A DNA stretch of 64,000 bases from Syntrophotalea acetylenivorans. GTDB taxonomy: Bacteria; Desulfobacterota; Desulfuromonadia; Desulfuromonadales; Syntrophotaleaceae. Below are positions 2,141 to 21,560 of the stretch, one piece after another. Location of the stretch: assembly GCF_001887775.1 (NCBI RefSeq), contig NZ_CP015519.1, forward strand, positions 682,001 to 746,000, in the 5' to 3' direction. Both the position numbers and the translations under genes were made by a program. The notes beneath the pieces are model-generated. The model was not told the DNA's origin. It worked only from the letters and a program-made list of their open reading frames with translations, and searched no databases. The stretch's first letter is position 1. Each line of letters starts with the position of its first letter.

Positions 2141-2152
2141 TTGGCAATAGCC

Positions 2153-4336
2153 TTAACTAGCAGCAGGACTATCCTTGGGCTTTTCGGCATAATAGTAATC
2201 CTGATGGTAATAGCCACTTTTTTGAGCGTCAAATCCATTAATAACCAGACCGAGCCGCCTGGCACCCATATCGTCGAGTAATTTATTGGATCGTCCCAGC
2301 ACTTCGTAGGTCGTAACACCAAACCTGCTGAGCAGAATCACACCATCAAATAAGCGACAAAGAATACGCGTATCGGCCACCGGCAACAGGGGCGGCGAAT
2401 CGCAGATAATGAAATCGAATTCTTTACTCATCGACTCTAGAAGCATTTTCATCCGGTTAGATGCCAACAATTCCGAAGGGTTAGGCGGAATCGGGCCTGC
2501 AGGTATGACAGCCAGATGCGGCAAAGCCCCTTTTTGAATAATCTGACTGTCGGCAACTCCGGCAAGATAACTGCTGAGTCCTTTTGCATTGTTAAGTTTC
2601 AGCAATTTATGAAAGCGTGGTTTACGCAAATCGCCTTCGATGAGCAACACACGGTTGTCTGAGCGGGCCAGTGCAAACGCCAGATTAACCGAAGTGGTGG
2701 TTTTACCTTCCCCGGGTTCGCTGCTTGTCAAAAGAATCTTCTTGGGAGGACTGTCCGGAAAGGACAGCTGGATAGCAGTTCGAAGAGCTCGATAACTTTC
2801 AGCAAACTGCGACTGCGGCTCATTTAATACAACTTGATCGAGACCTTTTTCGGAATCACGCCAACGACCGATCGTGGTCAAAATCGGGATACCGAAACGA
2901 GCTTCGACGTCTTCAGGGTCTTTGATTGTATTATCGAGATATTCAAGGAAAAAGGTCAGCCCAATTCCTCCCAAGGTGCCGATCACCAATGCTAACAATA
3001 AATTTACTGCAACCCAGGGGCGCGCCGGCTTCAGTGGTACGGAAGCCTTTTCAACTATCCAGAGGTTTATTGGACTGGTTTCTTCAGTAATGCTCTTTTC
3101 TTTCAGCTTTAGCATTAATGCATCGTGAAGCTGGCGGTTGGTATCTACACTCCTCTTTAACGCCCCATACTGGATAAACTTTTCGTTCAATAACAAAGCT
3201 TCGTTCTTGGTCGAACCCAACTGGGAACGCAAACTTCGTTCGTTAGCCTGAGCCAACTCGTATTCGTTTTTAATCGACTCTACAAGACGGTCGATCTCCT
3301 GATTTCTTTTTCTTCTCAAAACCTGCAGATCGCCTTTAACCTTAACCATCAAGGGATGTTTGGCCCCATATTTATTCGACAGCTCCATGATGTTCTTCTC
3401 AGTTTCTACAATCTGAGCGCGAATGGCTTGCAGTGAGGGGTCTGACGATATGGCTGAGACGGTAGTAGCGGCCCGGTAGTCTCTGCCGACCTTCCGGACC
3501 TTGCTATAAAGAGCTTCCAATTCCTTGCGCCGTGACTGGGAGCGAATTAGTTGGATATTAATTTCGGAAAGCTTCTGAGGCGTTACCGTCATACGGTCTT
3601 CGATGGTAACAATATTGTTGGCCTTCATATAATTCTGAAGTTCCATTTCAGACTGCCGCAATTTCTTCGCTTCGGTCTCGGCCTTTTTGGTCATCCACTG
3701 CAAACTGTTTCTTGTGGAGGACAATTTCATTTCGAGGGTTTCTTCAATGTAAGCCTTAGCCGTGGTATTGGCTATAAGAGCTGACAGTTCAGGATTCGGT
3801 GACAAATAACTGATATTTACAATGCGGCTTCCCTCAATGGGACGAACAAGAATTTGTTCACTAATGATTTTTGCCAGGTCATCCTTTTTAGATGATTCTG
3901 CTGCATCGTTCTTCGGCGAGTCCTCATCGGACTTAAATAAATTGCGTACTCGCTCCGGCAGTGCCTTCAGCTCCATGGCAAAAAAGCGCAGTGGTGACGT
4001 CTTTTGTACCGTTTTACCGATAAGGGCATCGTAATTTTCTTCCAATGATAGGATGTTGACTACCCTTCTGGCCACCGCACGGCTTTTTATAAGCTGGAAC
4101 TGTGTTTCATGAAAAATCGGGTCATAAGAACTGCGGTTGTAACTGCCGGTGAGGTCCCCCCCCTCCGTCTTTTCGATCATGACTTTCGTCACTCCCTCGT
4201 AGAGAGGCGTCATGATAAAAGTTGCCACCGATACAAGCACCACCACAGAGAGGAGAAAAACAAGCAGAATATGCCTTCGCTTATTTATAATCCTGATAAC
4301 ATCCCGTAGATGCAGTTCTTCTTTATTGATCGGCAT
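2153..4336 (-). CDS. Wzc-like polysaccharide co-polymerase fused to BY tyrosine kinase
   Basis: The 727-residue protein has an N-terminal membrane helix near residues 22-42, a Wzz-type chain-length domain, long charged coiled-coil segments (about 200-420), a second membrane helix near 435-460 and a C-terminal tyrosine kinase. The kinase shows Walker A SSEPGEGKTTT near 540, Walker A' LLIEGDLRKPRFHK, Walker B FDFIICDSPP near 637 and a tyrosine cluster SGYYHQDYYYAEKP at the C-terminus that is the usual autophosphorylation tail. Such proteins control polymer length and couple synthesis to the outer-membrane exporter. Here the exporter (SLBB protein) is directly upstream and the cognate phosphatase directly downstream. 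ATG has an AAGGGG ribosome site seven bases before it. A single fused polypeptide is the Wzc arrangement, in contrast to the split co-polymerase/kinase pairs of exosortase-A loci. Confidence 0.93.
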   Translation of the reverse strand: MPINKEELHLRDVIRIINKRRHILLVFLLSVVVLVSVATFIMTPLYEGVTKVMIEKTEGGDLTGSYNRSSYDPIFHETQFQLIKSRAVARRVVNILSLEENYDALIGKTVQKTSPLRFFAMELKALPERVRNLFKSDEDSPKNDAAESSKKDDLAKIISEQILVRPIEGSRIVNISYLSPNPELSALIANTTAKAYIEETLEMKLSSTRNSLQWMTKKAETEAKKLRQSEMELQNYMKANNIVTIEDRMTVTPQKLSEINIQLIRSQSRRKELEALYSKVRKVGRDYRAATTVSAISSDPSLQAIRAQIVETEKNIMELSNKYGAKHPLMVKVKGDLQVLRRKRNQEIDRLVESIKNEYELAQANERSLRSQLGSTKNEALLLNEKFIQYGALKRSVDTNRQLHDALMLKLKEKSITEETSPINLWIVEKASVPLKPARPWVAVNLLLALVIGTLGGIGLTFFLEYLDNTIKDPEDVEARFGIPILTTIGRWRDSEKGLDQVVLNEPQSQFAESYRALRTAIQLSFPDSPPKKILLTSSEPGEGKTTTSVNLAFALARSDNRVLLIEGDLRKPRFHKLLKLNNAKGLSSYLAGVADSQIIQKGALPHLAVIPAGPIPPNPSELLASNRMKMLLESMSKEFDFIICDSPPLLPVADTRILCRLFDGVILLSRFGVTTYEVLGRSNKLLDDMGARRLGLVINGFDAQKSGYYHQDYYYAEKPKDSPAAS

Positions 4337-4373
4337 AGCCAGACCCCTTGATTTTAATTTGGGTTATCGCTGT

Positions 4374-5177
4374 TTAGAAAAAACTTTCCGGAACAACGAT
4401 GACGTCATCGGCCTGAACCGGCGTATGCAGAGGTACCTTTTTCAAGACGCTTTCCTTATCATCAACCTTGCGAATTATCTGGATTTTCCTCTGCGAAGCC
4501 AGTTCGGTAAAACCACCTGCCATAGTTATGGCTTTGATTACGGAAGTCCCCTCTTCCAATTTATAAGCTGCCGGTCTGTTCACCTGACCGGTCACGTAAA
4601 ACACACCAGCTCGTGGGACAAACACACTGTCTCCATCCACGATCATAAGATTTGAAACATTTTCCTTCTTTTCCAAAAGGCTTTTAAGACTGACGGATAT
4701 AATCTGGTCAATCTCAGGTTGAGAAAGATCTTTCCTCTTTATGGTCACCAGGTCACCGGCATCTATGGTCAAACCACCCGCTTTGGAGATCAATTCCATC
4801 AGCGAACTGGGACCGCTCAATTCATAGAGACCCGGGACCTTCACTTCACCCATGATAATAGTTTTTTGACTACGGAATTCCTGAACGAACACAGACACTT
4901 GGGGGTCAATAATATACCCCTGAGCTAATTTTTTAGACAGATCCTGCGCTACTTCAGAAACAGTATACCCATCGATCTTCACCTCACCGATCAAGGGAAA
5001 AAGAATCGTTCCATTGCCACTGATTCGAGTGGTTGTCTCCAGGTCGGGGTTGTCGTATACCAAGACCCTAAGCACGTCCCCCTCGCCAACCCGATAATCC
5101 ATACTGTCGGAAGGAGCAGCAAAACAACTGAAGCTCAACATCAATACCAACGCTACTGTGCTCAACCATAGTTTCAT
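4374..5177 (-). CDS. Wza-like polysaccharide export protein (Poly_export/SLBB)
   Basis: The 267-residue protein has a Sec signal peptide with a hydrophobic core VALVLMLSFSCFA, then a Poly_export domain beginning DYRVGEGDVLRVLVYDNPDL and two SLBB-type segments (one starting with the KTIIMGEVKVPGLYEL stretch, the second with FYVTGQVNRPAAYKLEEG). Proteins of this family form the outer-membrane or periplasmic channel for exported polysaccharide. The Cys in the signal region is not in a convincing lipobox, so signal peptidase I cleavage near CFAA is as likely as lipidation. The start has an AGAGG ribosome site. It lies between the barrel protein and the Wzc-like co-polymerase, the standard export order. 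Confidence 0.9.
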   Translation of the reverse strand: MKLWLSTVALVLMLSFSCFAAPSDSMDYRVGEGDVLRVLVYDNPDLETTTRISGNGTILFPLIGEVKIDGYTVSEVAQDLSKKLAQGYIIDPQVSVFVQEFRSQKTIIMGEVKVPGLYELSGPSSLMELISKAGGLTIDAGDLVTIKRKDLSQPEIDQIISVSLKSLLEKKENVSNLMIVDGDSVFVPRAGVFYVTGQVNRPAAYKLEEGTSVIKAITMAGGFTELASQRKIQIIRKVDDKESVLKKVPLHTPVQADDVIVVPESFF

Positions 5178-5201: not shown

Positions 5202-6524
5202 TTAAAACGATGCGACCAGATTCAAATAGACGGAGTGCTTGTCGTAATCGTTATCCACAGTATTGGAATCCCTCTCTATGAACGAATAGCCTCCGGCCAG
5301 ATTGAGCCACCGGGTCAATGTATATTTCAAGTCACATCCGCCACCATAGTAATCATCCTCCCGGTTGTCCCCCTTGTACTCATCGTTCTGATAGAAGAGA
5401 TTAAGAGAGGCCAGAAATTTGGCGGTCAGACGCTGGAAATACCGTAGTTGCAGCTTATGTGAAAGGATGTATTCTCCTCCGCCGGAATCCGTTTCATTGG
5501 TACGGCGGTTGCCACGCAGGTCAACATAGGTTTTGGGTGTAAAACGGTGGCTGAATTGTATTTCAGAAAGAAAGTTGTTGGCATCATCGATTCCATCGTC
5601 ATCAAAATCTTTCTTTCCGTACCCGACCATGGCCCGCCACCGCGATTTGATGGTTTGCCGCCACTGGAGGCCAAGAAATGCCTGATGCTCCTTGCTACTT
5701 GAGAGCACATTTTCGTCATAATCAATATCGATAAAGTTATATTCAATGAATGTTGATGTTTTTGGCATAAAACGATAGAAGGCCCGGCCGGTCAGACGAT
5801 GATCATCCCGGTCACGAAAAGTGCTTGCATCGTCATCGTACTGAAGCGTGTACCAGGCATACTCAATTTCCGTACGGGTTTTGGAACTTATTTCATAAGA
5901 AACTGTGCTCCCCAAAAGATTTGAGGTGAATTTATCAAGGGAGCGAGTCGGTCCGCTACCGGCAGAATCATGCTCAAGCTCATATACATTGAGCAGGTCT
6001 ACCGACAATCCTCCGCGGAAATTGTAGCGGAAAAAACCTTCGGCTTTCTGGTTGACCTGATCTTCTTCGTTAAAACGGTCGTGCCGCAGAATATCGGCCT
6101 GATAACTACCATAGGCCTGCAACCGGGTCTTCCCTTTGGTACGGAAACGGCTCAATTCCAGTCCGCCCGGGGCAACGTTAAGGGTGTTGAGACGAACCAG
6201 TTGATGGGGGCTGGCTGGCAGCGAGACCCAGATACCAGGGGTTATCCGAGTAACATACTCACTCTCAACATTGTTTTCTCTTTCAAAAAAGTTACTGGTA
6301 TAAAATTCACCTATGGCCAGATAGGGATGGATGTAGCCGGTTTTTCCACCGATAACATCGCCAATATTTATGGCATTTGATCGTTGTTCGAATATGCTTT
6401 CTCCGTAAGCCAGAGGCGGTACGATCTTTGCGGCATCAATCTCAACCACCGGTTCTTCTGCGAAGGCACACTGCCATCCGGATAACATAAGCACCATAAG
6501 CAACCATCCAATTGACCATTTCAT
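5202..6524 (-). CDS. EPS-associated outer-membrane beta-barrel protein
   Basis: The 440-residue protein starts with a signal peptide (MKWSIGWLLMVLMLSGWQCAFA, cleaved after AFA) and continues as alternating amphipathic strands rich in Tyr, Phe, Arg and Asp, ending in the C-terminal phenylalanine (LNLVASF) typical of outer-membrane barrels. It resembles the putative beta-barrel porin (BBP2-like/EpsL) proteins that accompany EPS export operons; that resemblance is by architecture and context, not by a search. Its ATG overlaps the TGA of the upstream dehydratase (ATGA), so the two are translationally coupled. It may form part of the exit path for the polymer with the downstream SLBB protein. Confidence 0.82.
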   Translation of the reverse strand: MKWSIGWLLMVLMLSGWQCAFAEEPVVEIDAAKIVPPLAYGESIFEQRSNAINIGDVIGGKTGYIHPYLAIGEFYTSNFFERENNVESEYVTRITPGIWVSLPASPHQLVRLNTLNVAPGGLELSRFRTKGKTRLQAYGSYQADILRHDRFNEEDQVNQKAEGFFRYNFRGGLSVDLLNVYELEHDSAGSGPTRSLDKFTSNLLGSTVSYEISSKTRTEIEYAWYTLQYDDDASTFRDRDDHRLTGRAFYRFMPKTSTFIEYNFIDIDYDENVLSSSKEHQAFLGLQWRQTIKSRWRAMVGYGKKDFDDDGIDDANNFLSEIQFSHRFTPKTYVDLRGNRRTNETDSGGGEYILSHKLQLRYFQRLTAKFLASLNLFYQNDEYKGDNREDDYYGGGCDLKYTLTRWLNLAGGYSFIERDSNTVDNDYDKHSVYLNLVASF

Positions 6525-8509
6525 GTATCCCTCCCGTCTGGATTTATTACGCTATAAGTCATATTTGGGCCCTTTTGACCCACCAGATTGAGTTTATCTC
6601 CCTTTACAGGAAAACCCATTTCCTCTTCCAGAGTATGATCTGTTTCATGCGATTCGCAATGAAACTCCGGTACAATTTTTTTCAGTGTGCGGACCAAAGT
6701 ATCCACATCCGCATTCTTCACCGCGTTATAAAGTGCTTCTGTTTCGTTATGTAAATCTTCTTCGGAAAAATGGGTTGCCTCAAGAATTCGAATTTTTTCG
6801 TGATCCGTTGCCTTGACGCCCTCCCCGGCAATGAGAAGCTCTTCATAAAGCTTTTCTCCCGGCCGCAGCCCGGTGAAGACAATTTCTATTTCTTCATAGG
6901 GTCGCCGGCCTGAAAGTCGAATCAATTCTTCCGCCAACCGCACAATTTTCACAGGCTCACCCATGTCGAGCAGAAATATTTCACCTGCGCCGCCCATACA
7001 GCCGGCTTGCAGCACCAATTGAACAGCTTCGGGGATGGTCATGAAAAACCGTGTAATTTCAGGATGGGTAACAGTAACGGGCCCTCCCTTGCGGATCTGT
7101 TCCTGAAAGGTCGGGATGACACTTCCATGACTTCCCAAAACATTTCCGAAACGCACGGTGGTTGCTTTCGTGCGTGCTTTGCGAACCAGATTTTGCACGT
7201 AGATCTCAGCAACCCTTTTTGTCGCCCCCATAATATTGGTTGGATTAACGGCCTTGTCGGTCGAGATCAGTACAAAATGTTCGGCACCAACGGCGACGCT
7301 GGCATCCACCACACACCGGCTGCCCATGACGTTGTTTTTAACCACCACCAGAGGATTCACCTCTGACATTGGCACATGTTTATAGGCAGCAGCATGAAAC
7401 ACAACCTGTGGCTTATGCTCCCAAAACACATGAGAGACTCTATTTTCATCTCGTATATCGCTAAGGCTTGGAGTAATGGTCAAATCTGGGAATTTTTCCC
7501 GCAATTCATTTTCGAGGTTGAACAAGGGAGTTTCTGCGTTTTCAAAAAGAACAAGGTGAGCGGGCCCAAACTGCGCCACCTGGCGGCAAATTTCACTGCC
7601 GATACTCCCCGCAGCGCCGGTCACCAGTATTCTTTTGCCATGTAGATATCCATTAATCTCTTCAACATCCAGCCGGATTGAAGGTCTGCCGAGCAAATCT
7701 TCAAGTTGTACGGAGCGGCACTGCTGGAGTGAAACCTGACCGGAAATAATGTCACCAATTGCAGGCAGAATTTTGGAGATAATTTTATTTCTTTTGCAAA
7801 ACGCGACAATATCGCGCAGCTCTTTGGGAGAAACCGAACTTTGCGCAACGATGACCATATCGATACCGCTACGCTTGCAGATATTCTCCATATCATCCAG
7901 GGTGCCTATGACAGGCACCCCGTAAATAACTTTCGCCTGGCGGCGCAAGTCATTATCGATATAACCTAGAACAGCTTTCTCTAACTTAGGGTTTTCCCTT
8001 ATCTCTCGAACGATGGACTGAGCGACGGTACCGGAACCTACGACCAGTACACTTTTTGGCCTGGAATGATACCCCCTTGAATTAAGATCCAGATGTTCTC
8101 TGATCATACGAGTGGAAACCCGTACGCCGATCATAATGAAAAAACAAAGGAGAAAATCGAGCAGGATAATTGAACGAGGTAATCCGTCAGTTAACCCCAT
8201 GAACAAGACATAAACAACGACCCCTACCGAGGCCAGCAGGTTAGCCCTCAGGATTTGCAGTAGATCGGGCATCGACACATAGCGCCACCAACCATCTGCA
8301 AGGCCCATGCTCCAGAATACAATCAGCTTTATAAACAGCATGGCAGGCAACAGCTGTAAGATTAACGCCCAGTATTGCGAAGGAATATGGAAATCAAACC
8401 GAAGGGCAAAGGCGTAAATCAATGAGGCACTGACAACCGATAAATGAAACAGGGCGATCAGAGTTTTTCGAACCATGCTGTGACGCAACAGCAACGGAAG
8501 ATCTCTCAT
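6521..8509 (-). CDS. WbpM/PglF/CapD-type nucleotide-sugar 4,6-dehydratase (membrane-bound)
   Basis: The protein has about four N-terminal membrane helices, a CoA-binding-like Rossmann domain (VLVVGSGTVAQSIVREI) and a C-terminal short-chain dehydrogenase domain with ILVTGAAGSIGSEICRQV, AAAYKHVPMSEVNP, STDKAVNPTNIMGATKR and FGNVLGSHGSV. The catalytic pair reads Met-xxx-Lys in place of Tyr-xxx-Lys, which is characteristic of WbpM/PglF-type UDP-GlcNAc C6 dehydratases. The expected product is UDP-2-acetamido-2,6-dideoxy-4-ketohexose, the substrate for the DegT aminotransferase just upstream. I chose the ATG at 8509 over an in-frame ATG at 8569 because it has an AGGGGGA site eight bases before it, while the longer start has only a weak one and places 20 polar residues before the first helix. 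Confidence 0.9.
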   Translation of the reverse strand: MRDLPLLLRHSMVRKTLIALFHLSVVSASLIYAFALRFDFHIPSQYWALILQLLPAMLFIKLIVFWSMGLADGWWRYVSMPDLLQILRANLLASVGVVVYVLFMGLTDGLPRSIILLDFLLCFFIMIGVRVSTRMIREHLDLNSRGYHSRPKSVLVVGSGTVAQSIVREIRENPKLEKAVLGYIDNDLRRQAKVIYGVPVIGTLDDMENICKRSGIDMVIVAQSSVSPKELRDIVAFCKRNKIISKILPAIGDIISGQVSLQQCRSVQLEDLLGRPSIRLDVEEINGYLHGKRILVTGAAGSIGSEICRQVAQFGPAHLVLFENAETPLFNLENELREKFPDLTITPSLSDIRDENRVSHVFWEHKPQVVFHAAAYKHVPMSEVNPLVVVKNNVMGSRCVVDASVAVGAEHFVLISTDKAVNPTNIMGATKRVAEIYVQNLVRKARTKATTVRFGNVLGSHGSVIPTFQEQIRKGGPVTVTHPEITRFFMTIPEAVQLVLQAGCMGGAGEIFLLDMGEPVKIVRLAEELIRLSGRRPYEEIEIVFTGLRPGEKLYEELLIAGEGVKATDHEKIRILEATHFSEEDLHNETEALYNAVKNADVDTLVRTLKKIVPEFHCESHETDHTLEEEMGFPVKGDKLNLVGQKGPNMTYSVINPDGRDT

Positions 8510-8660
8510 CACATATCCCCCTAAAAACGAGAAAACCTCCCCTGTCAGATGGGTAGTTACGAAAACCATTCAAGGTCACCGGATAACGGGCGAACCATCA
8601 GTCTCCAACCCTGCAAAACCTATAAAACATCTAAATTCTAAATAGTTATCTTATGTTTAA

Positions 8661-8688
8661 GGAATATCACGGCTCGCCAAATTGTCAA
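8661..8688 (-). promoter_or_regulatory. Possible sigma-70 promoter for the dehydratase-export genes
   Basis: On the minus strand a perfect TTGACA (8683-8688) is followed after 16 bases by TATTCC (8661-8666), in the 196-base gap between the aminotransferase stop and the dehydratase start. The -35 is perfect and the -10 is partial. It would allow the export half of the locus to be transcribed independently of the sugar-decoration half. Prediction from sequence only. Confidence 0.35.
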
Positions 8689-8705
8689 TCTGGTTTAGCC
8701 AACAA

Positions 8706-9896
8706 TCAACCTGCATCAGTAAATACCTCCTCTATGCAGGAACTTATGGCGGCCATTTCCGTTTCTTTAATCGTCGGATGCACGAGGAACATCAAACTGG
8801 TTTCTCCGACCTTGCGGGCAACCGGAAGTCGTGGTTCGGAAGAAAATCCGCCCCGCTGAAAAGACTTTTCCAGATAGATTTCACTACAACTCCCGGTAAA
8901 AACCGGCACTCCCCGATCAGTCAAAGCTTGCAATATTTGCTCGCGTCCTATATCTGGGGCCATTCTGTTGGGTTTCAGGAAAGCATAATATTTATAATAG
9001 GAATGCCGCATGTACTCCGGTGGCTCTTCGATTCGCACCGCTTCTATTCGACCAAACAATTCACTGAGCAAACGCGCATTATTCCTTCTGACTGTTACCC
9101 AGTCATCAAGCTGGGTCAGCGCCCAGCGCCCGAGCACCCCCTGCATCTCCGTCATACGCCAGTTGGTACCGAACGATTCATGCAGCCAGCGAAAACCCGG
9201 TGGGTGTTGCCGGTTATAAACGGCGTCATAACTGCGCCCATGATCCTTGTAGGCCCAGGCTCGCTGCCAAAGGTTTTCATCATTGAGCGTAATCATTCCC
9301 CCTTCCCCGCCGGTGGTCATGATTTTATCCTGACAAAAAGAAAAGGCAGCGATATCCCCCAAACTCCCAACCATACGGCCTTTATAGGTCGCACCATGCG
9401 CTTGCGCACAATCTTCTATAACAGGAATACCGTGTTGTTTGGCCAGGGCCAGGATAGGATCCATCTCACAGGGCCAACCGGCCAAATGCACTACAATAAT
9501 CGCTTTGGTACGGGACGTTAAAACCCGGGATATTGTTTCGGCGTTGATATTCTGACTAACAGGGTCGATGTCCGCAAAAACGGGCCGGGCTCCACGCATA
9601 ACAATGGAACTGGCCGTGGCGATAAATGAACGACAGGTCGTGACGACTTCATCCCCAGGTTCAATCCCCAGCGCATACAAGGCCAGTTCCAGAGCCACGG
9701 AACCGTTTGCCACGGCAATCGCATAACGGGTCCCAACATATTCGGCGAATTCATTTTCGAAGAGTCGACATTCTTGACCGGTCCAATAATTCACTTTTCC
9801 CGACCGGAGGACGGCGCTGACCTTCTCAATTGCTTCTTCAGAGAAAATGGGCCAGGGAGATAATGGAGGGATTTTTCCGTTATGGTTTCGGAGCAT
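8706..9896 (-). CDS. DegT/DnrJ/EryC1/StrS sugar aminotransferase
   Basis: The 396-residue protein is a PLP-dependent nucleotide-sugar aminotransferase. Visible family signatures are VANGSVALELALYALG (cofactor phosphate site), VIEDCAQAHGATYKG (the Asp that pairs with the pyridine nitrogen) and FSFCQDKIMTTGGEGG, whose Lys would form the internal aldimine. Family members transaminate 3- or 4-ketosugar nucleotides. With a WbpM-type 4,6-dehydratase next in the operon, the likely product is a UDP-4-amino-4,6-dideoxy-HexNAc (bacillosamine-type precursor). C3 against C4 specificity cannot be decided by eye. The gene is followed by a 196-base gap containing a promoter-like sequence. Confidence 0.88.
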   Translation of the reverse strand: MLRNHNGKIPPLSPWPIFSEEAIEKVSAVLRSGKVNYWTGQECRLFENEFAEYVGTRYAIAVANGSVALELALYALGIEPGDEVVTTCRSFIATASSIVMRGARPVFADIDPVSQNINAETISRVLTSRTKAIIVVHLAGWPCEMDPILALAKQHGIPVIEDCAQAHGATYKGRMVGSLGDIAAFSFCQDKIMTTGGEGGMITLNDENLWQRAWAYKDHGRSYDAVYNRQHPPGFRWLHESFGTNWRMTEMQGVLGRWALTQLDDWVTVRRNNARLLSELFGRIEAVRIEEPPEYMRHSYYKYYAFLKPNRMAPDIGREQILQALTDRGVPVFTGSCSEIYLEKSFQRGGFSSEPRLPVARKVGETSLMFLVHPTIKETEMAAISSCIEEVFTDAG

Positions 9897-9982
9897 GGCG
9901 TTACTCCTGGTCGAGGTTTATAAACATAACAGAATACAAGATATAAGCAGGCGTGGGATATTTCTGTCCTCTTTCAGGGAGA

Positions 9983-10639
9983 TCAATCGCAGTGGCCGGG
10001 TATTTCCTCAGCAGTTTCAGCCATTATTTTATCCCGCCTTTCCTGATCCAGATCCGTTTCGACAGCGTCCGGATCAGCCGACACACCGTCTCGTGAAACA
10101 ACTTTGACGACCGTCAGCAAAAGGATCTTGAAGTCCAACCACAGCGACCTGTTCTCGACATACCAAACATCAAGGGCCAGTCGTTCTTCCCAAGGCAGAA
10201 AGTTGCGGCCATGAATCTGGGCCCAGCCGGTAATTCCGGGTTTGACACTGTGACGCAATCGCTCTCGGTTCGTATAGTACGGCAGATAACGCATAAACAA
10301 GGGGCGTGGACCAACCAGGGCCATATCCCCCTTGATTACATTGTACAATTCAGGTAGTTCGTCCAGGCTGGTATTACGTAAAACACGTCCCAAAGGAGTC
10401 AATCGATGGGCATCGGCAAGTAATTTACCATCACTGTCCCGCTGATTGGTCATCGTGCGAAATTTGTAAAGGCGAAATGATTTTTCCCCTAAACCGGCCC
10501 TCTGTTGGGCAAAAAATACCGGCCAACCGTGCTTGGCCCAGACCAAGACAGCTACCAATGCCAAAACGGGCCAGATTAACAGCAAACCCAAGACAACCAA
10601 AATGAGATCCATCGTTCTTTTTGGAAAGGAACCTTGCAT
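9983..10639 (-). CDS. Initiating phosphoglycosyltransferase (bacterial sugar transferase, PglC/WcaJ type)
   Basis: The 218-residue product has a single N-terminal hydrophobic segment (MDLILVVLGLLLIWPVLALVAV), a basic FRLYKFRTM stretch, and the catalytic Asp-Glu pair in SLDELPELYNVIKGDM followed by ALVGPRPL. These monotopic enzymes transfer sugar-1-phosphate from a nucleotide sugar to undecaprenyl phosphate, starting the repeat unit. The short form without extra N-terminal helices is PglC-like and fits an amino-dideoxy sugar substrate from the two neighbouring genes. I chose the ATG at 10639 (AGGGG eight bases upstream) over the ATG at 10675, which has no ribosome site. Confidence 0.92.
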   Translation of the reverse strand: MQGSFPKRTMDLILVVLGLLLIWPVLALVAVLVWAKHGWPVFFAQQRAGLGEKSFRLYKFRTMTNQRDSDGKLLADAHRLTPLGRVLRNTSLDELPELYNVIKGDMALVGPRPLFMRYLPYYTNRERLRHSVKPGITGWAQIHGRNFLPWEERLALDVWYVENRSLWLDFKILLLTVVKVVSRDGVSADPDAVETDLDQERRDKIMAETAEEIPGHCD

Positions 10640-10812
10640 AGCATGCCCCTTGAAAATTACCAGACCTCCGTTCATCGGTTCGAATTACAAAAAAACTTAT
10701 TGAAAAGCCTAACGGCAAGGCCATCCCTGCAATGGTGTACCTTCCATCAGGCCGTGTAATTTATCCTTGAAAACTCTCTAAACGCATCCATTTTCGATAT
10801 GTTTATTTTCAT

Positions 10813-12042
10813 TCACCTGATTCTTTTGTGAAAACTTTGCCACCACGATAGAGGCTGTTCCTCCTTTTCGCCTAGTCGACACTGTCTGCGCCGAATTAAT
10901 TGTTTGGCCAAAAAGCAGAGCCTTTGCAGAAAAGGCTTAGGGTCTTTGATGTCCCAGATGGGATGCACATGGGGCTTAAAGTATGGCCGCAGATAAGCGG
11001 ATAAAGGATATTTTTCTTGTCTGAACGACATCAGGGAATAACAAAAATCTCGCGTAATATCGGCCCAGTAAATACCTTCTTTGAACGCAGCAGCTTGGGG
11101 GCGTTCTCCCTCCATAAGGTGCCGGTAGTGCAACCAGGCAAAATTGATACCGCAGTGTACCGACAAAAGGCCGGATAAATTGTGACGACCATTAATCTCC
11201 ATCAATTTATAAAGGCCGTCCCGTGCATCCCATTTGAACTCGGTACAAGCGTAACCGCTGAAACCGACAGACTGGAGAGCCTTTCTGCCGGGCTCGATGA
11301 CTTCAGGTATCCATTCGCTCAGGGCCACCCTCGGTGACCCCCAAAGGTAAGGGGCATTTCGGATATGTCGCGAAGTAAATTCTGTCAAGGCTTGCCCTTG
11401 CCAGGTGTACGCATTGTAATTGACCACCGCATCATCCCCGCCGGGGATGATCTCCTGAAGCATTACCTCCAGATTGTTTTCCGCCGCCAATCGATAGACG
11501 GCGATCATTTCCTCCCTGTTCTTGACCGGGATCATCTTTCTTTTAAAACGTTTATAAAACAGATGCCCCTGGGAGGGTTTTACCAGATAGGGAAACTCTA
11601 TACCGACGGCGTAACTCTCTACATCCTCCACCGAAGTTGGCACGAAAGTCCTCGGTACCGGTACTCCTGCTGACTCTGCCAGAGGGTAAGTATTTTTCTT
11701 GTCTATATACCGGGAAACAATCTCTTGATCCGGACAGGCGACAACAAAATGCTCTTCCAGTCGTTCTTTGTGCCGAGAAACCGCGACCAAGGTTTCATCG
11801 GAACAGGGAATCAGGAAACTGCCGCCAAAACGGGCTCTTTGCTGAACAATAATATCGATAAATTGATGTTCATATTTCTCGGGGTGAGGTACTTGGACTA
11901 TTTCTTTTACATAACGGGAATGATGAGCCATATCCCCTTCGCGATAACAGAAAAGAACAATCGGCACCCCCATTCGCCCAAGAGAGCGAATAACGCCAAG
12001 GGCAACGGTATGATCGCTTAGCACAAGCGCAGGTTTCAGCAT
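10813..12042 (-). CDS. ATP-grasp carboxylate-amine ligase family protein
   Basis: The 409-residue protein begins with a Rossmann-like preATP-grasp segment (ALVLSDHTVALGVIRSLGRMG), then LIPCSDETLVAVSRH, an ATP-grasp core with FPYLVKPSQGHLFYKRFK and MLQEIIPGGDD, and late acidic metal-binding residues in YKLMEINGRHNL. Enzymes of this superfamily join a carboxylate to an amine through an acyl-phosphate. The fold is clear but the substrate is not: relatives in polysaccharide loci are generally uncharacterised. Position between the GNAT/ligase genes and the initiating transferase suggests it amidates a uronic acid or attaches an amino acid to the glycan precursor. No signal peptide is visible, so it should act in the cytoplasm. 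Confidence 0.78.
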   Translation of the reverse strand: MLKPALVLSDHTVALGVIRSLGRMGVPIVLFCYREGDMAHHSRYVKEIVQVPHPEKYEHQFIDIIVQQRARFGGSFLIPCSDETLVAVSRHKERLEEHFVVACPDQEIVSRYIDKKNTYPLAESAGVPVPRTFVPTSVEDVESYAVGIEFPYLVKPSQGHLFYKRFKRKMIPVKNREEMIAVYRLAAENNLEVMLQEIIPGGDDAVVNYNAYTWQGQALTEFTSRHIRNAPYLWGSPRVALSEWIPEVIEPGRKALQSVGFSGYACTEFKWDARDGLYKLMEINGRHNLSGLLSVHCGINFAWLHYRHLMEGERPQAAAFKEGIYWADITRDFCYSLMSFRQEKYPLSAYLRPYFKPHVHPIWDIKDPKPFLQRLCFLAKQLIRRRQCRLGEKEEQPLSWWQSFHKRIR

Positions 12043-12083
12043 GAAGTCTCCTGAAATAATATTACCTTTTACAAACTAACGAC

Positions 12084-13046
12084 CTATTTCAGCCCTAACA
12101 CAGCCATTACAGGGAAATGGTCAGACCCACCTGAATCTTTAATCGTTCCTGCTTTAATGGATATAAAATGATTATTAAAAAAAATATGATCGATTCGAAT
12201 CAGAGACGGCACCGAAACCAAACCGAACACCTTTATGACCGAAGAAGGAAAAGAAAAACCGAACCCGAATCCCGATTCCCAATGAGCATTTTTTAAAACC
12301 TCGCTGATATGTTTATACGTCTCTGCCTGATCCGTGGTATTGAAATCTCCAGCAAGGATTACAGGACCTGTTTCTTGAATTATATCTTCCTGTAGTAAAG
12401 TTGCTACTTTCCGGTACCTGGACAGCCAGCCTCCCCGTCGCAACATGTGAACATTAAAAACGGTGATTTGACCGGATGGAGAGTTTAAAACAACTTTCTG
12501 GACCCTGCCCTTTCCTTTTAAAACAGTACTAGAATTCGCTGGGTAACGGCTTGCTACCGCCAGTAACAGTTGAGGTTCATAGGAAAAATAGACTTTATGA
12601 CCGTCATAAAGATCTTGAAGTTGGCTTGCCAGTCTCTCGAATACCGCGGGCTTAACCTCCTGCAACAGAAGAATATCAGGCCTCTGCCCCTTGATAACCC
12701 CAGCGATTCGACCCGTGTCCAAATTTTTAGACCAGGTATTATAACTGAGAACCTTGAGGTCCATGACACCAGGATCAAAACTTCCCGAACGTGACCAGAA
12801 AAGAGGGGCATAGTTGACTACGATGATCACTGCAGAAAGCAGCAAAAGAGCGGTCAGCCAGCGATATTGAATCAAACCGGCCCAGAGGGCACCGGGCAAT
12901 AACGCGAGAAGAAGCCAAGGCATCAGATATCCCGTATAGCGGGCAAGAAAAAGCTGATCGCCGGTCCACCAACGCAGAATCAAACCTGCAAGAAGAAGTA
13001 GGCCCAAAACCCACCAGGCCAGCCATAATATGGTAGGCATTCTCAT
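12084..13046 (-). CDS. Membrane-anchored endonuclease/exonuclease/phosphatase-fold protein
   Basis: The 320-residue protein has about three hydrophobic N-terminal segments (residues 5-90) followed by an EEP-fold domain with LKVLSYNTWSKNLD, PDILLLQEV, ILAGDFNTTDQAE, RIDHIFFNN and GSDHFPVMAVL. All metal and catalytic residues of the fold (Asn, Glu, Asp-x-Asn, Asp-His, Ser-Asp-His) are present, so it should be active. The membrane anchor argues against a DNA-repair role and for a phosphodiester such as a lipid-linked or surface substrate. The arrangement resembles YafD-like proteins. Its role in the locus is unknown. Confidence 0.75.
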   Translation of the reverse strand: MRMPTILWLAWWVLGLLLLAGLILRWWTGDQLFLARYTGYLMPWLLLALLPGALWAGLIQYRWLTALLLLSAVIIVVNYAPLFWSRSGSFDPGVMDLKVLSYNTWSKNLDTGRIAGVIKGQRPDILLLQEVKPAVFERLASQLQDLYDGHKVYFSYEPQLLLAVASRYPANSSTVLKGKGRVQKVVLNSPSGQITVFNVHMLRRGGWLSRYRKVATLLQEDIIQETGPVILAGDFNTTDQAETYKHISEVLKNAHWESGFGFGFSFPSSVIKVFGLVSVPSLIRIDHIFFNNHFISIKAGTIKDSGGSDHFPVMAVLGLK

Positions 13047-13153
13047 GTCTTTCTCAATATATTTGAGCGCATATCATTTACAAAAGCCGGTATTCGAATT
13101 GTAACCTTCCAGCTAATATCTCTTGCTTTTTTCATTTATAGGGACAAGGCACT

Positions 13154-13786
13154 TCAGTCCTTGACCTGAGCGGTCCGATAAAGAAGAAACCGCCGCATGA
13201 TATAATGAGGCAGCTCCTGATATCCGAGCAGCCTATGAACCCACAGAGCGGGGATATTGGTCGCGGAGTAATAACCATATGCCCTGTGATACCCTTTACC
13301 ATAAAGATGGTGCAGTACACTGTTCAGTAAAAAGGTCGCATGCCCACCTCCCCGCTGTTCGGCACCGACGTGCATATCGAACATGTAAATTTCTTTGTCG
13401 GCGAGATCAATTTTGAACCGCTGGACATCAGGATGGATCTCTGGGGTTTTAGCCGTGCCGCGACTCACGTACCAAAGATCGCCAATCGCCCTGCCATCAT
13501 GGACCATGGCCAACCCCCGATACCCCTTTTGGAAATAGAGATCAACCCTTTCCTGACGGCTGCGCAGGGGATATTTGAATGCCTGGGGTGAAAAATTCTC
13601 TGGGGTCACCTCGACCAGGTGCATCCCTTCTTCGGCACCTTTGAGCGGCGGCAGATCCGTCAGGCTCCTTACTACCGGCACTTCCTCATCCCGGTGGTAA
13701 AGGGCGAAACAACAGGCCGAAAGAAAACCTTCCTGATGCCAGTGCTCAATAAACTGGAAATATTTCACCCGCAGGAGAGACAACAT
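13154..13786 (-). CDS. GNAT-family N-acyltransferase-like protein
   Basis: The 210-residue protein ends in a GNAT-type domain: YMFDMHVGAEQRGGGHATFLL fits strand beta4 plus the acyl-CoA pyrophosphate loop (Q/R-x-x-G-x-G/A), followed by YHRAYGYYSATNIPALWVHRLLGYQE, the usual N-x-P/A helix. The first half is not recognisable to me. It is separated by 4 bases from the amidohydrolase gene and belongs to the carrier protein/dehydrogenase/ligase operon, which makes it the best local candidate for moving the carrier-bound acyl group to an amino sugar. That role is inference; it could equally use acetyl-CoA. Confidence 0.68.
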   Translation of the reverse strand: MLSLLRVKYFQFIEHWHQEGFLSACCFALYHRDEEVPVVRSLTDLPPLKGAEEGMHLVEVTPENFSPQAFKYPLRSRQERVDLYFQKGYRGLAMVHDGRAIGDLWYVSRGTAKTPEIHPDVQRFKIDLADKEIYMFDMHVGAEQRGGGHATFLLNSVLHHLYGKGYHRAYGYYSATNIPALWVHRLLGYQELPHYIMRRFLLYRTAQVKD

Positions 13787-13790: not shown

Positions 13791-14849
13791 CTAAACCTCC
13801 TTTATGAACAATTTTTCCGGGTTCTCACCTGCAATCAGTGCAAACAGGTCTTCCGGTCGGGAAAATTGTTGTTCCAGAACCCAGTAAAGCTTGACAGCCG
13901 CTTTCCAGGAAAGCTCATACAAAGCATCTGAACCAAAAAGGATCCGCTCAGGTTCTACCTGACCCACGAGCACGCTAAGCACATCAACCGACAAAGCGGA
14001 GGTATCCACCAACAAATGATCATATTTGGAAAGTAGCTCATGTAACTGCGGCAAAACCCGACGTTGAAACTCTTCGGCACCGATCCCAAAGGCTCCGGCA
14101 TGGGCGATGACGATGGGGTAGCAAGACCCGGCCAGATCGAGTTTGGCCAGATGGTCTAATTCGCCCTGTTGACATGCCGTTGGCGGATATCTCACGCTTG
14201 GGCTCTTCCCGCCATGCACAATCACCGGCATACCAACCTTCTGGGCCGTCTTTAAAAGAGCATCTACGCGCGCACGCCCTTCCACTGCAGTGAGCTCATG
14301 CCCGGATAATGTCGGATGGACTTTAAGTACGCTGATTTCGTACTTTTTGATCGCTTGCTGGATGTCCTCCTCGACCCTTTCCGGGGCCAGCGTATTTGGC
14401 AAACTATAGCCCCATAAAAAATGAGGGTCATCACCGAACATCCTGGCCATTTCCGCCATTCGAACATCGGCGGTGCGGCCCGGCTGTGCCACAGCCAAAA
14501 GAACGAATCTCCCCAATCCTGCAAGACGCGCCTGATCAAGCCAATATTGGGGCCCGGTATGGGTAAAACGGCGCCGCATGGTCAACAGCATCATTCGTTC
14601 TACCAAATCACGAGGCGTATCAGGATCTGGCGATGCCGGAGCTTCGAGAGAAATAGCGGCACTCATTGGCGGCACATAACACGCCTTTCCGGTACTATAA
14701 ACTCCGGCCACTTCTGAATTAGGCTCGTATCTGCAATCGTCGTACATTACTTCATAAGGATGAGCATGGCAGTCTGTCAGTCGCACCGACGCTCCGATTT
14801 CTTGAATCGTCGCCAGATAACGCTCGACGGATGTCTTATCGATCCGCAT
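13791..14849 (-). CDS. Amidohydrolase-2 family metal-dependent hydrolase
   Basis: The product of about 352 residues shows the TIM-barrel amidohydrolase_2 signature: DCHAHPYE near the N-terminus (first metal HxH), LKVHPTLSGHE, MPVIVHGGKSP, IVIAHAGAFG and ILFGSDALYE (the conserved Asp). This family contains decarboxylases and C-O/C-N hydrolases. I chose the ATG at 14849, which has GGAGA seven bases upstream and overlaps the 3' end of the adenylation ligase by 14 bases; the in-frame ATG at 14906 lies deep inside that ligase gene. The overlap implies co-translation, so it probably acts on the ligase/carrier-protein product or its precursor. No specific reaction can be assigned. Confidence 0.72.
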   Translation of the reverse strand: MRIDKTSVERYLATIQEIGASVRLTDCHAHPYEVMYDDCRYEPNSEVAGVYSTGKACYVPPMSAAISLEAPASPDPDTPRDLVERMMLLTMRRRFTHTGPQYWLDQARLAGLGRFVLLAVAQPGRTADVRMAEMARMFGDDPHFLWGYSLPNTLAPERVEEDIQQAIKKYEISVLKVHPTLSGHELTAVEGRARVDALLKTAQKVGMPVIVHGGKSPSVRYPPTACQQGELDHLAKLDLAGSCYPIVIAHAGAFGIGAEEFQRRVLPQLHELLSKYDHLLVDTSALSVDVLSVLVGQVEPERILFGSDALYELSWKAAVKLYWVLEQQFSRPEDLFALIAGENPEKLFIKEV

Positions 14850-16419
14850 GTTTGGTCTCCATGGCCAACGCTCGCAGCGCCGCACGATTAATTTTTCCCC
14901 TTCCACATCGGGGGATATCCGCCAATGGCAACAAACGCCGAGGCATCATGTATCCCGGAAGACGGTCACGCAATCGTGCCATAATAAATGCGTGGTCAGT
15001 TCCGCCATTGTCCTCGACAAAAGCAACCAACTCCTCCATCCCGCCCCGGTCTGCTGTCACTACCGCCGCCTCGCAAACCCCATCGATGGCCCGGAGCGCC
15101 TGTTCAATCTCTCCCAATTCGATACGATAGCCCATGACCTTAACCTGCTGATCCTTGCGGCCGACAAACTCGATATTGCCATCCTCCCTTCGCAATCCCA
15201 GGTCTCCGGTATGGTACCAGTTCTCTGCGGAAGCTCCCGGGACCCTTACCGTAAAAAACACCCGGGCGGTACGCTCCGTATCGTTCAGATAACCTTTTCC
15301 CAGACCTGGACCGGTCAAACAAAGCTCACCAACCGTTCCATTCGGAACAGGCAGGAGGCTTTCATCGAGCAGGTCCGCCTTCATCCCTTTGCAGGAACGA
15401 CCGATAGGAATACGCTCTCCAGGTTCTTGCGGTATATTTTTAACTGGATAACAGAGGGAAATACCCGTGGCCTCGGTGGGCCCATAAACATTGAAGAATG
15501 ATTTGTCCGGGAATGCTTCCATCCAACGGATAAGAGTGCGAGTCGGCAGCGCATCGCCGCCAAAAAGAACACGGCTCATGGTAGGAATTCTCCCTGGAGC
15601 AATAACCCCGGCCCGGTCCATATAGAAAAGGAGAGAGGAGATACCCTTCCAGATAGTGACTTGCTCCGCTTCCATGAACCCCAGAAGTTTTTCTGGAAAC
15701 AGAGTCAGGGCTTTATCCGCCAGACAGAGAGTAGCCCCGGCCTTAATCGGGCACCATAGATCAAAGGTGGACATGTCGAAATGAAAAGGAGCCGTACCTA
15801 GAAGTCGGTCTTCACTATTTATGGCAAAATAGTCGACCGCCCAGTCAATATAGTTGCATATATTTCGATGAGTGATCATGACCCCTTTAGGGGCACCGGT
15901 CGATCCTGAGGTATACAGTACATAAGCCAGGTCATCGGGCTCGTTACTGCACGGGGGTGCCCTCATCGAACTTGCCAGGACATCTTCTATCGCCGCTGCC
16001 GCTTCAACACCGGCAAGAGGCAGTTCGCAACGGGGCGCGAAAAAGATACGTGGTATAGACGCCTTAACAGTCTCCGCTAGAGGCAGGATTGTCTGACTGT
16101 CACATAAGATGGCAGTCGGCGCGCAATCGGCCACAATCTTTTGCCACCTTTCCGGCGGGGAGTTGGGATCGAGCGGGACATATACCGCATCAGCTTTAAG
16201 AATACCCAGAACGGCTGGAAGAAAAGATGCCGACCGGTTTAAACAGAGGGCCACCCGGTCCTGGCGGCGGACTCCATATTGCTTCAGCAAGGTGGCCAGG
16301 CGATTGGAAAGGTCTGCCACTTCGGCATAGGTGATAGACCTGCGCCCATCGGTACAGGCCACCTTGGCCGGCGACACCGGGGAATGGTGCAGGTAATGTT
16401 GAACGAGGTTCCCATCCAT
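14836..16419 (-). CDS. Stand-alone amino-acid adenylation (AMP-forming) ligase
   Basis: The 527-residue protein carries the adenylation-domain core motifs in order: YVLYTSGSTGAPKGVMITH (A3), FHFDMSTFDLW (A4, with the Asp that usually binds a substrate alpha-amine), NVYGPTEAT (A5), WYHTGDLG (A7), KVMGYRIELGEIEQAL (A8) and GKINRAAL (A10 Lys). There is no fused carrier or condensation domain. It resembles DltA and the prolyl/amino-acyl carrier ligases of pyrrole-forming pathways. The carrier protein is encoded two genes upstream, with an acyl-CoA-dehydrogenase homologue between. An eye alignment of the pocket residues did not give an obvious proline code, so the amino acid is left open. Confidence 0.85.
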   Translation of the reverse strand: MDGNLVQHYLHHSPVSPAKVACTDGRRSITYAEVADLSNRLATLLKQYGVRRQDRVALCLNRSASFLPAVLGILKADAVYVPLDPNSPPERWQKIVADCAPTAILCDSQTILPLAETVKASIPRIFFAPRCELPLAGVEAAAAIEDVLASSMRAPPCSNEPDDLAYVLYTSGSTGAPKGVMITHRNICNYIDWAVDYFAINSEDRLLGTAPFHFDMSTFDLWCPIKAGATLCLADKALTLFPEKLLGFMEAEQVTIWKGISSLLFYMDRAGVIAPGRIPTMSRVLFGGDALPTRTLIRWMEAFPDKSFFNVYGPTEATGISLCYPVKNIPQEPGERIPIGRSCKGMKADLLDESLLPVPNGTVGELCLTGPGLGKGYLNDTERTARVFFTVRVPGASAENWYHTGDLGLRREDGNIEFVGRKDQQVKVMGYRIELGEIEQALRAIDGVCEAAVVTADRGGMEELVAFVEDNGGTDHAFIMARLRDRLPGYMMPRRLLPLADIPRCGRGKINRAALRALAMETKHADR

Positions 16420-17570: not shown

Positions 17571-17571
17571 A

Positions 17572-17829
17572 TCAACCCTCCCCAACGATGCCGTTTTTTT
17601 TGTCGACTAAGGAGGAAATCGCTGCAAGGGTGGCGAAATTTTCGGGGAGCAATTCGTCACCTTCAATAGTGACGGCAAATTTCTTCTCCAGGAATTCCAA
17701 TAGAACGATAATTCCCATAGAGTCGATAATCCCCTGATCGATGAGCAAATCGGTGTCGGTAATGGGTTCGCAATTTCCACCACAAATCTCGGAGGTTATA
17801 AAATGCCTGATATTGTCGATCGTCCTCAT
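17572..17829 (-). CDS. Acyl/peptidyl carrier protein
   Basis: The 85-residue acidic protein has the carrier-protein four-helix pattern with IIDSMGII, where Ser37 is the phosphopantetheine attachment site, followed by LLEFLEKKFAVTIEGDEL. It is not the fatty-acid ACP type (DSLD) and resembles stand-alone carriers paired with adenylation ligases. I chose the ATG at 17829 because AGGGAGGA lies nine bases upstream; an in-frame ATG at 17904 adds 25 residues with no family counterpart. The stop codon is one base from the dehydrogenase ATG, so the two are tightly coupled. It is the first gene of the operon, downstream of a 584-base gap containing a terminator-like hairpin. Confidence 0.85.
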   Translation of the reverse strand: MRTIDNIRHFITSEICGGNCEPITDTDLLIDQGIIDSMGIIVLLEFLEKKFAVTIEGDELLPENFATLAAISSLVDKKNGIVGEG

Positions 17830-18049
17830 TAGGTCTTTCCTCCCTGGCATGAAGAACTGCGTCGTCCTGTATCGCTCCTCGTCTCTTAAATATCCCGGGG
17901 TCAAAATTCATAGGAATTTTTGCACCCTATTAAACATGTTCAGAAATATGAGCCAGCCGGTGACAGTTTAAAAAATTCGTTATGTCGAAAGTATATCAAT
18001 CATCGATAAAGGCTCAACCTGAGAAGCCTGAATAACTTCCCGGAAGGCT

Positions 18050-18291: not shown

Positions 18292-18413
18292 GAAAATTCT
18301 TTGGATTGGTCACTTTGACTCAAACAGCCATCCAGAAGGAATCATCCCATTTACGACGTTTGGGTAACCTGTAGTTGCAACGTCCGGATTTTCCAAACTT
18401 AGAGGGTGACCTT

Positions 18414-20432: not shown

Positions 20433-20443
20433 TTGCGTATCGG

Positions 20444-21495: not shown

Positions 21496-21560
21496 AGTCA
21501 CCTCACTATTGAAACAGGATCATATGCAAAAAACCATGTGGATATGGCCGTATTTAGTAC

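What the first reader, a model, noticed from the sequence alone, without database searches (positions are those of the whole stretch)
6521..13786. Predicted N-acylated 4-amino-4,6-dideoxy sugar pathway
A WbpM-type dehydratase (Met-xxx-Lys), a DegT aminotransferase and a PglC-like phosphoglycosyltransferase are adjacent, the core of bacillosamine-type synthesis. The PglD-type hexapeptide acetyltransferase is absent. The only acyltransferase candidate is the GNAT-like protein in the carrier operon, so the 4-amino group may receive the unusual carrier-bound acyl group.
Basis: inference. Interest (0 to 1): 0.6.

Follow-up and report, generated by a model that had tools for sequence, protein, structure and literature searches.

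The report
Carrier-linked acylation of polysaccharide amino sugar
A bacterium related to Geobacter may decorate an amino sugar of its extracellular polysaccharide not with ordinary acetate but with a custom acyl group built on a small carrier protein, using a transferase whose closest relatives stay with the same sugar genes while the acyl-making genes are swapped.

Summary
The window encodes a WbpM-type dehydratase (M447-x3-K451), an aminotransferase close to Pcryo_0638 (which makes UDP-2-acetamido-4-amino-2,4,6-trideoxy-D-glucose), a PglC-like phosphoglycosyltransferase (PGT), and a GNAT coupled to a carrier, a prolyl-carrier-type dehydrogenase, an adenylation enzyme and an amidohydrolase. 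No PglD passes its cut-off in the genome. Of 34 GNAT loci, 31 have a cassette gene within 400 bp. Of 35 loci with this aminotransferase, 12 have PglD, 10 the GNAT, none both. GNAT and PGT are one protein in one relative; in another the GNAT sits between aminotransferase and PGT, the cassette at the locus's far end. The dehydrogenase tree splits by donor type (amidohydrolase or arginase family); the GNAT tree rejects that split and is compatible with grouping by sugar context. Carrier-fed GNATs (SbzI, FeeM) are known. Against: the cassette also occurs without these sugar genes; sugar context and PglD/GNAT exclusivity are confounded with locus type; FemAB-like and ATP-grasp proteins are rivals, so 'only candidate' is wrong. 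Acyl group unknown. New variant of a known kind.

The parts
6521..8569 (-). WbpM/PglF-type membrane-anchored UDP-GlcNAc 4,6-dehydratase, M447-xxx-K451
8706..9896 (-). PglE-type DegT aminotransferase, PLP lysine K191 by motif (motif recalled), nearest solved relative Pcryo_0638 (7l7x)
9983..10675 (-). PglC-like monotopic phosphoglycosyltransferase
10813..12042 (-). ATP-grasp protein; rival N-acylation (carboxylate-amine ligase) candidate; weak family matches only
12084..13046 (-). Endonuclease/exonuclease/phosphatase-fold protein with hydrophobic N-terminus; often kept next to these genes, role unknown
13154..13786 (-). GNAT acyltransferase, motif R145-GGGHA; proposed to move the carrier-bound acyl to the 4-amino group
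13791..14906 (-). Amidohydrolase-2 family protein; invariants H27, H29, K175, H177, H211, H249, D307 (numbering of the first row of alignment A2) fit a metal site
14836..16419 (-). Stand-alone amino-acid adenylation enzyme, pocket read-out DMFKLGVGIK
16422..17585 (-). Acyl-CoA-dehydrogenase-family enzyme closest to prolyl-carrier dehydrogenases (4irn)
17572..17904 (-). Carrier protein with DSMG attachment motif; an internal ATG start is also possible
18375..19208 (+). ETF beta subunit, divergent; likely electron acceptor of the dehydrogenase
19233..20432 (+). ETF alpha subunit with N-terminal 4Fe-4S clusters
20410..21501 (-). FemAB-like GNAT-fold protein (Acetyltransf_6); rival acyltransferase
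5202..6524 (-). BBP2_2 outer-membrane barrel of the EPS locus
1430..5177 (-). Wza-type export protein, Wzc-type co-polymerase/kinase and CpsB/CapC phosphatase: EPS export end of the locus

Best explanation
WbpM and the DegT enzyme turn UDP-GlcNAc into UDP-2-acetamido-4-amino-2,4,6-trideoxy-glucose. In parallel the adenylation enzyme loads an amino acid on the carrier, the dehydrogenase oxidises it on the carrier with electrons going to the adjacent ETF pair, and the amidohydrolase trims it. The GNAT then moves this acyl from the carrier to the 4-amino group, taking the place of PglD, and the PglC-like enzyme puts the acylated sugar on the lipid to start the EPS repeat unit. Shown here: gene content, family placement, lack of a PglD above cut-off in the whole genome, conserved linkage, one fusion, tree patterns. 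Inferred: every reaction, the position of the acyl group and its identity.
For: DegT 500.8 bits to 7l7x, i.e. Pcryo_0638, whose activity on this pathway was shown (PMC8040287, abstract and passages); PGT closest to PglC. No NeuD/PglD above cut-off in the genome. GNAT within 400 bp of a cassette gene in 31 of 34 loci, although the loci were found by GNAT similarity alone. Of 35 PglE-type DegT loci, in the stretches read (3.3-32 kb): PglD 12, GNAT 10, neither 13, both 0. In-frame GNAT(1-210)-PGT fusion in L040. In G012 the GNAT lies between DegT and PGT while the cassette is at the other end of the locus (L044, L078). Trees: ACAD splits by hydrolase type with one change (support 100/100) and rejects grouping by sugar context (p-AU 9.7e-29); GNAT rejects grouping by donor type (p-AU 6.6e-43, 6 changes), while grouping by sugar context needs 2 changes (3 with L034 kept) and is not rejected (p 0.33). 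Precedent: SbzI, a GNAT, installs an acyl from a carrier loaded by an adenylating enzyme on an amino group, and FeeM is named there as another (PMC6331615, passages). SbzI (8zt3, Z 10.4) and its carrier complex (8zt4, Z 9.9) are among the model's matches, tied with many other GNATs; the sugar-amine acetyltransferase 5kga ranks first at Z 13.9.
Against: PglD loci and GNAT loci differ in locus type: none of the 12 PglD loci shows the BBP2 barrel, 9 of 10 GNAT loci do, and WbpM, which acts before acylation, separates them as cleanly as PGT does (100/100; 100/99). So neither exclusivity nor the PGT split is specific to the acyl, and the GNAT's grouping by sugar context could reflect inheritance with the EPS locus; the GNAT clade that holds all 11 sugar-context rows has only moderate support (84/86). 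Three of the 10 GNAT loci (L035, L036, L043) show no PGT of this family in the stretch read. GNAT and cassette also occur in Geobacter/Geomonas/Citrifermentans without these sugar genes and beside genes of another amino-sugar type with their own hexapeptide protein (L046, L062, L064; in part L076). Anaeromyxobacter soli's GNAT falls in the sugar clade, yet its genome has no DegT match at E <= 1e-60. Nine EPS-type DegT loci do without this GNAT. The tree groups were tested after a first tree had been seen. Most GNATs use CoA donors. No role of the hydrolase is established.
Confidence: 0.6

Rival explanations
1. The FemAB-like protein (20410-21501) acylates the 4-amino group, and the GNAT plus cassette decorate another sugar of the repeat unit.
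For: FemAB-like gene in 9 of 9 EPS-type DegT loci without the GNAT, but in 3 of 11 GNAT genomes; with G122, which has neither, a 3/8 against 9/1 table, Fisher p 0.0075. The two halves were measured differently (locus tblastn; whole-genome search at E <= 1e-20).
Against: The window's genome, G103 and G101 have both, so it is not a strict substitute; in the window it lies beyond the ETF genes next to a glycosyltransferase, not in the carrier operon; no fusion to PGT was seen; 8 of 11 GNAT genomes lack it at that threshold.
Confidence: 0.15
2. The ATP-grasp protein (10813-12042) joins a free carboxylic acid to the 4-amino group, as Neisseria PglB2 is thought to do; the GNAT acts elsewhere.
For: It lies next to the PGT; PglB2 is an ATP-grasp/PGT protein responsible for a glyceramido sugar (PMC11130364, passages).
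Against: At E <= 1e-6, hits in 5 of 10 GNAT loci, 5 of 13 loci with neither GNAT nor PglD (one of them at 30% identity), 0 of 12 PglD loci, so it goes neither with nor against the GNAT; weaker ATP-grasp hits exist in L038 and L042. In L040 and L041 it sits by the ETF genes, away from the PGT. Its similarity to PglB2 was not tested.
Confidence: 0.1
3. The GNAT simply N-acetylates the 4-amino group with acetyl-CoA; the carrier cassette serves something else.
For: The nearest structural match is a glucosamine N-acetyltransferase (5kga, Z 13.9); an RxxGxA-type loop is present (RGGGHA).
Against: 31 of 34 GNATs have a cassette gene within 400 bp, also in genomes without these sugar genes; a plain acetyltransferase has no reason for that.
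Confidence: 0.08
4. The cassette and GNAT make an acylated small molecule or modify a non-sugar acceptor, and lie in the EPS locus by chance or for regulation.
For: Seven Geobacter/Geomonas/Citrifermentans copies show no DegT match to the references used within 20 kb or less; in the four whose ORFs I listed the neighbours look like housekeeping genes by eye.
Against: GNATs from sugar contexts fall apart from those copies on the tree; GNAT-PGT fusion.
Confidence: 0.07

Closest known systems
Bacillosamine pathway (C. jejuni PglF-PglE-PglD-PglC; P. cryohalolentis 0612/0638/0637, PMC8040287)
   Same: Dehydratase, 4-aminotransferase and PGT are relatives of the same kinds and in the same logical order
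   Different: No PglD-type hexapeptide acetyltransferase above cut-off; a GNAT coupled to an NRPS-like carrier cassette stands in its place
SbzL-SbzG-SbzI of altemicidin, and FeeM (PMC6331615, passages)
   Same: Adenylating enzyme loads a carrier, a GNAT moves the acyl to an amine
   Different: There the product is a small molecule; here the proposed acceptor is a UDP sugar for EPS, and a dehydrogenase and a hydrolase act as well
Neisseria PglB/PglB2 (PMC11130364, passages)
   Same: The 4-N-acylating unit is physically joined to the PGT, as in the L040 GNAT-PGT protein
   Different: The joined unit is an acetyltransferase or ATP-grasp, not a GNAT with a carrier cassette
Vibrio cholerae O1 perosamine N-tetronate (PMC3441752, passages)
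   Same: A 4-amino-4,6-dideoxy sugar carries a dedicated non-acetyl acyl made by genes of the locus
   Different: Different sugar and acyl; that its genes include a ligase and a carrier is recalled, not checked
Prolyl-carrier dehydrogenation cassettes (AnaB 4irn; PigA/RedW; PltF)
   Same: Carrier, stand-alone adenylation enzyme, dehydrogenase; best solved relative of the dehydrogenase is a prolyl-ACP dehydrogenase (the name AnaB is recalled)
   Different: Below the PigA and RedW cut-offs; extra hydrolase and GNAT; substrate not shown to be proline

Membership tests
Bacillosamine (Pgl) pathway | Met-xxx-Lys dehydratase of WbpM/PglF type | tested here: met
   Polysacc_synt_2 391.1 bits; M447/K451; that this motif marks the type is recalled
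Bacillosamine (Pgl) pathway | PglE-type 4-aminotransferase | tested here: met
   500.8 bits to Pcryo_0638; NCBIfam PseC 234.8, below its 423.5 cut-off; activity untested
Bacillosamine (Pgl) pathway | PglD-type LbH N-acetyltransferase | tested here: not met
   No TIGR03570 match over cut-off in the genome, best 56.8 of 160.8
Bacillosamine (Pgl) pathway | PglC-type PGT | tested here: met
   202.7 bits to PglC, WbaP types 120.4 and less; NCBIfam EPS_sugtrans 248.3, under its 295.55 cut-off; sugar specificity untested
Carrier-fed GNAT N-acyltransferases (SbzI/FeeM kind) | GNAT fold | tested here: met
   Model pLDDT 90.7; Foldseek probability 1.00, VIA Z up to 13.9
Carrier-fed GNAT N-acyltransferases (SbzI/FeeM kind) | Encoded with a carrier and an adenylating enzyme | tested here: met
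   4-bp gap to the cassette; 31 of 34 loci with a cassette gene within 400 bp
Carrier-fed GNAT N-acyltransferases (SbzI/FeeM kind) | Acyl transfer from carrier to amine | not testable with these tools
   Needs biochemistry
Prolyl-carrier (pyrrole-type) cassette | Dehydrogenase over curated PigA/RedW cut-offs | tested here: not met
   376 of 500 and 326.5 of 650 bits
Prolyl-carrier (pyrrole-type) cassette | Proline-type adenylation code | tested here: inconclusive
   DMFKLGVGIK; not the proline codes I recall, but those were not fetched; PltF is among single-domain relatives (6o6e, 240.1 bits)
XrtA-associated ligase TIGR03098 | Curated cut-off | tested here: not met
   234.1 of 592.35 bits

The most novel reading that the evidence does not exclude
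A modular 'designer-acyl' system for polysaccharides: an amino acid is loaded on a carrier, oxidised there and trimmed, by an amidohydrolase in type A cassettes or an arginase-family enzyme in type B, and a GNAT specific for the UDP-4-amino sugar accepts either donor, so that the first sugar of the EPS carries an amino-acid-derived N-acyl group not known to me from polysaccharides (dehydroamino acyl, pyrroline or pyrrole type), with donor cassettes exchanged on a fixed acceptor during evolution.
Probability: 0.35. Interest if true: 0.78.

Novelty: new variant of a known kind. Interest (0 to 1): 0.6.

Why it matters
It would join two fields: NRPS-style carrier chemistry and polysaccharide assembly. 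If right, the C4 amide of a bacillosamine-like sugar is a programmable site, with a family of transferases (34 loci read here) whose donor cassettes can be swapped. That gives a route to polysaccharides with unusual acyl groups and a testable account of why PglD was not seen in a class of EPS loci in Geobacter relatives, where EPS matters for biofilms and metal reduction (the last point from general knowledge).

Tried and rejected
PGT tree as evidence that PGT reads the acyl group: the split of PglD loci from the rest was strong (12 PglD rows plus L080 on one side), but the WbpM control split the same way (10 PglD rows plus L089), so I do not use it. The DegT tree mixes them more (4 changes for the PglD label). 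The 209-272-aa ORF between WbpM and DegT in several relatives was suspected to be a hidden PglD; it is a LuxR-type regulator in the four tested.

Adenylation pocket: 11 of 11 type A rows read DMFK[LI][GA].G[IVG]K, with K at position 278; 4 of 4 type B rows read DLFN[IL]S[LV]S with one unaligned position. K278 recalls acidic-substrate codes from memory; not enough to name the substrate. Amidohydrolase fold search: uncharacterised amidohydrolases, decarboxylases, lactonases and others lie at Z 22.4-19.0; no chemistry assigned. The arginase-family protein of type B (one sequence, L038) is nearest to agmatinase-2, proclavaminate and guanidino-acid hydrolases, which hints at a guanidino group, unproved.

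Literature: searches (0 papers; 9 papers, titles and abstract starts seen) looked for such a cassette in EPS work and showed none; 82 (34 papers, 8 listed), 85 (14, 6 listed) and 86 (22, 6 listed) gave nothing used; 74, on acyl carriers and flagellin viosamine, gave 0; 73 was malformed. A claim of absence from print rests on these searches alone.

L034 was left out of the GNAT tree (short contig, context unknown; no DegT match at E <= 1e-60 in its genome); with it the sugar-context label needs 3 changes. L044's donor label was taken from L078. L037 was labelled sugar-context because its genome has the DegT on another contig (L103). ACAD tree: 30 rows, those with over 55% of the length. The PglD profile was built from the 12 hexapeptide candidates themselves; 10 of them were checked against TIGR03570. 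The 13 'neither' loci include L089 and L090 (no PGT seen), L102 (3.3-kb contig) and L103 (see above).


Full report
Observation. The window lies at 682,001-746,000 of a 3.22-Mb single-contig genome; its kin are Desulfuromonadales, judged from contigs shared. On the minus strand, from 17,904 down to 1,430, an EPS locus runs: carrier, acyl-CoA-dehydrogenase-like enzyme, adenylation enzyme, amidohydrolase, GNAT, exo/endo-phosphatase-like protein, ATP-grasp, PGT, DegT, WbpM, barrel, Wza, Wzc, CpsB. The first five are tightly coupled; the GNAT starts 4 bp after the amidohydrolase, and 107 bp separate it from the next gene. An ETF pair is divergently encoded next to the carrier.

Sugar. The aminotransferase matches 7l7x with 500.8 bits, the next solved structure with 213.9. 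7L7X is Pcryo_0638, shown to act in making 2,4-diacetamido-2,4,6-trideoxy-D-glucose with a left-handed beta-helix acetyltransferase, Pcryo_0637 (PMC8040287: abstract and passages). The PGT is nearest to PglC. So the pathway up to UDP-2-acetamido-4-amino-2,4,6-trideoxy-glucose is well supported by sequence. The acetyltransferase is missing: the NeuD/PglD model finds nothing over its cut-off in the whole genome, while 9 of 10 such genes tested from relatives pass it and the tenth misses by 0.5 bits.

Cassette. The dehydrogenase's best solved relative is the prolyl-ACP dehydrogenase 4irn (353.7 bits), but it is below the curated PigA and RedW cut-offs. The adenylation enzyme passes the general amino-acid adenylation model (401.7 of 317.4 bits), with aspartate at the amine-binding position (that this position binds the amine is recalled).

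Linkage of GNAT and cassette. GNAT relatives were sought by GNAT sequence only: 17 of 136 genomes of the order, the window's own included, and 28 named loci (11 of them copies of the former). In the 34 distinct loci a carrier, dehydrogenase, adenylation or hydrolase gene lies within 400 bp in 31; the exceptions are L048 and L049 (1.3 kb away) and L044, whose cassette lies at the other end of the same locus (L078). Cassettes come in two kinds: type A with the amidohydrolase, and type B with an arginase-family hydrolase and a different adenylation subtype.

Linkage of GNAT and sugar. Of 35 loci with an aminotransferase of this kind (35 of 136 genomes), 12 have PglD nearby, 10 the GNAT, 13 neither, none both, in the stretches read (Fisher p 0.007). 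In L040 GNAT and PGT are one 422-residue protein. In L038-L041 the GNAT lies between adenylation enzyme and PGT; in L035, L036 and L043 no PGT of this family was seen. On trees, the dehydrogenase splits exactly by cassette type (one change, 100/100) and rejects grouping by sugar context (p-AU 9.7e-29). The GNAT does the reverse: grouping by cassette type is rejected (p-AU 6.6e-43) and needs 6 changes; grouping by sugar context needs 2 (3 with L034) and is not rejected (p 0.33). A type A GNAT (L042) sits inside a supported clade of type B GNATs from the same sugar context. The plain reading is that the GNAT recognises the sugar while donors are exchanged. The groups were tested after a first tree had been seen, so the p-values are descriptive, and the clade that holds all 11 sugar-context rows has moderate support (84/86).

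Limits. PglD loci and GNAT loci are different kinds of locus: no BBP2 barrel was seen in the 12 PglD loci, one in 9 of 10 GNAT loci, and WbpM, which cannot see the acyl group, separates them as well as PGT does. Inheritance of the GNAT with the EPS locus could therefore give the sugar-context grouping without any recognition of the sugar. Nine EPS-type loci have neither GNAT nor PglD; all nine have a FemAB-like gene, which only 3 of 11 GNAT genomes have, the window's among them. The ATP-grasp gene is another candidate, with the Neisseria PglB2 precedent (PMC11130364, passages), but across loci it goes with neither side. Geomonas-type copies lie without these sugar genes, so the GNAT family is not confined to this sugar; Anaeromyxobacter soli is an exception inside the sugar clade.

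Mechanism and precedent. Carrier-fed GNATs exist: SbzI moves an acyl from carrier SbzG or SbzK, loaded by SbzL, to an amino group, and FeeM is cited beside it (PMC6331615, passages). The GNAT model is confident; its nearest solved match is a glucosamine N-acetyltransferase (5kga, Z 13.9), with SbzI at Z 10.4 and the SbzI-SbzG complex at Z 9.9, tied with many other GNATs. A shared fold alone proves no function. Dedicated non-acetyl acylation of a 4-amino sugar is known from V. cholerae O1 (PMC3441752, passages). Each step has a precedent; the combination, an NRPS-like oxidising cassette feeding a UDP-sugar acyltransferase, is what I did not find described.

Verdict.

Noticed in passing
L061, L067, L068, L069, L072, L073, L077: Type B cassette with GNAT and arginase-family hydrolase in Geobacter/Citrifermentans/Geomonas without the sugar genes nearby; acceptor unknown. 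ORFs were listed for L061, L067, L069 and L072 only.
   Followed up: partly
window 20410-21501; L079-L083, L085, L091, L097, L099: FemAB-like gene nearly complements the GNAT among EPS-type loci (9 of 9 GNAT-less EPS loci; 3 of 11 GNAT genomes).
   Followed up: partly
window 32282-40932: Three proteins matching the PelZ pectate-lyase model below its cut-off lie beyond the EPS genes, one of 1131 aa.
   Followed up: no
L085:11157-17060: A different adenylation enzyme and carrier next to the PGT, followed by ORFs that look like NAD-synthase-type and asparagine-synthase-type proteins (by eye): perhaps a third donor chemistry on the same sugar.
   Followed up: no
L042:8376-9359 and relatives in L079, L081, L082, L097: A 290-330-aa protein beside the PGT, without Pfam match in the one tested (L042), possibly a further acyltransferase by eye.
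   Followed up: no
window 19233-20432; L035:14219-16219: ETF alpha with 4Fe-4S clusters; relatives add a 666-aa CCG/Fer4 protein, which suggests a dedicated electron path from the dehydrogenase.
   Followed up: partly
L047:11732-13252: By eye, an exosortase-like ORF and its partner stand beside a type A cassette.
   Followed up: no
G012:C23:46417-47565: The dehydrogenase match in G012 is listed with one TGA inside.
   Followed up: no
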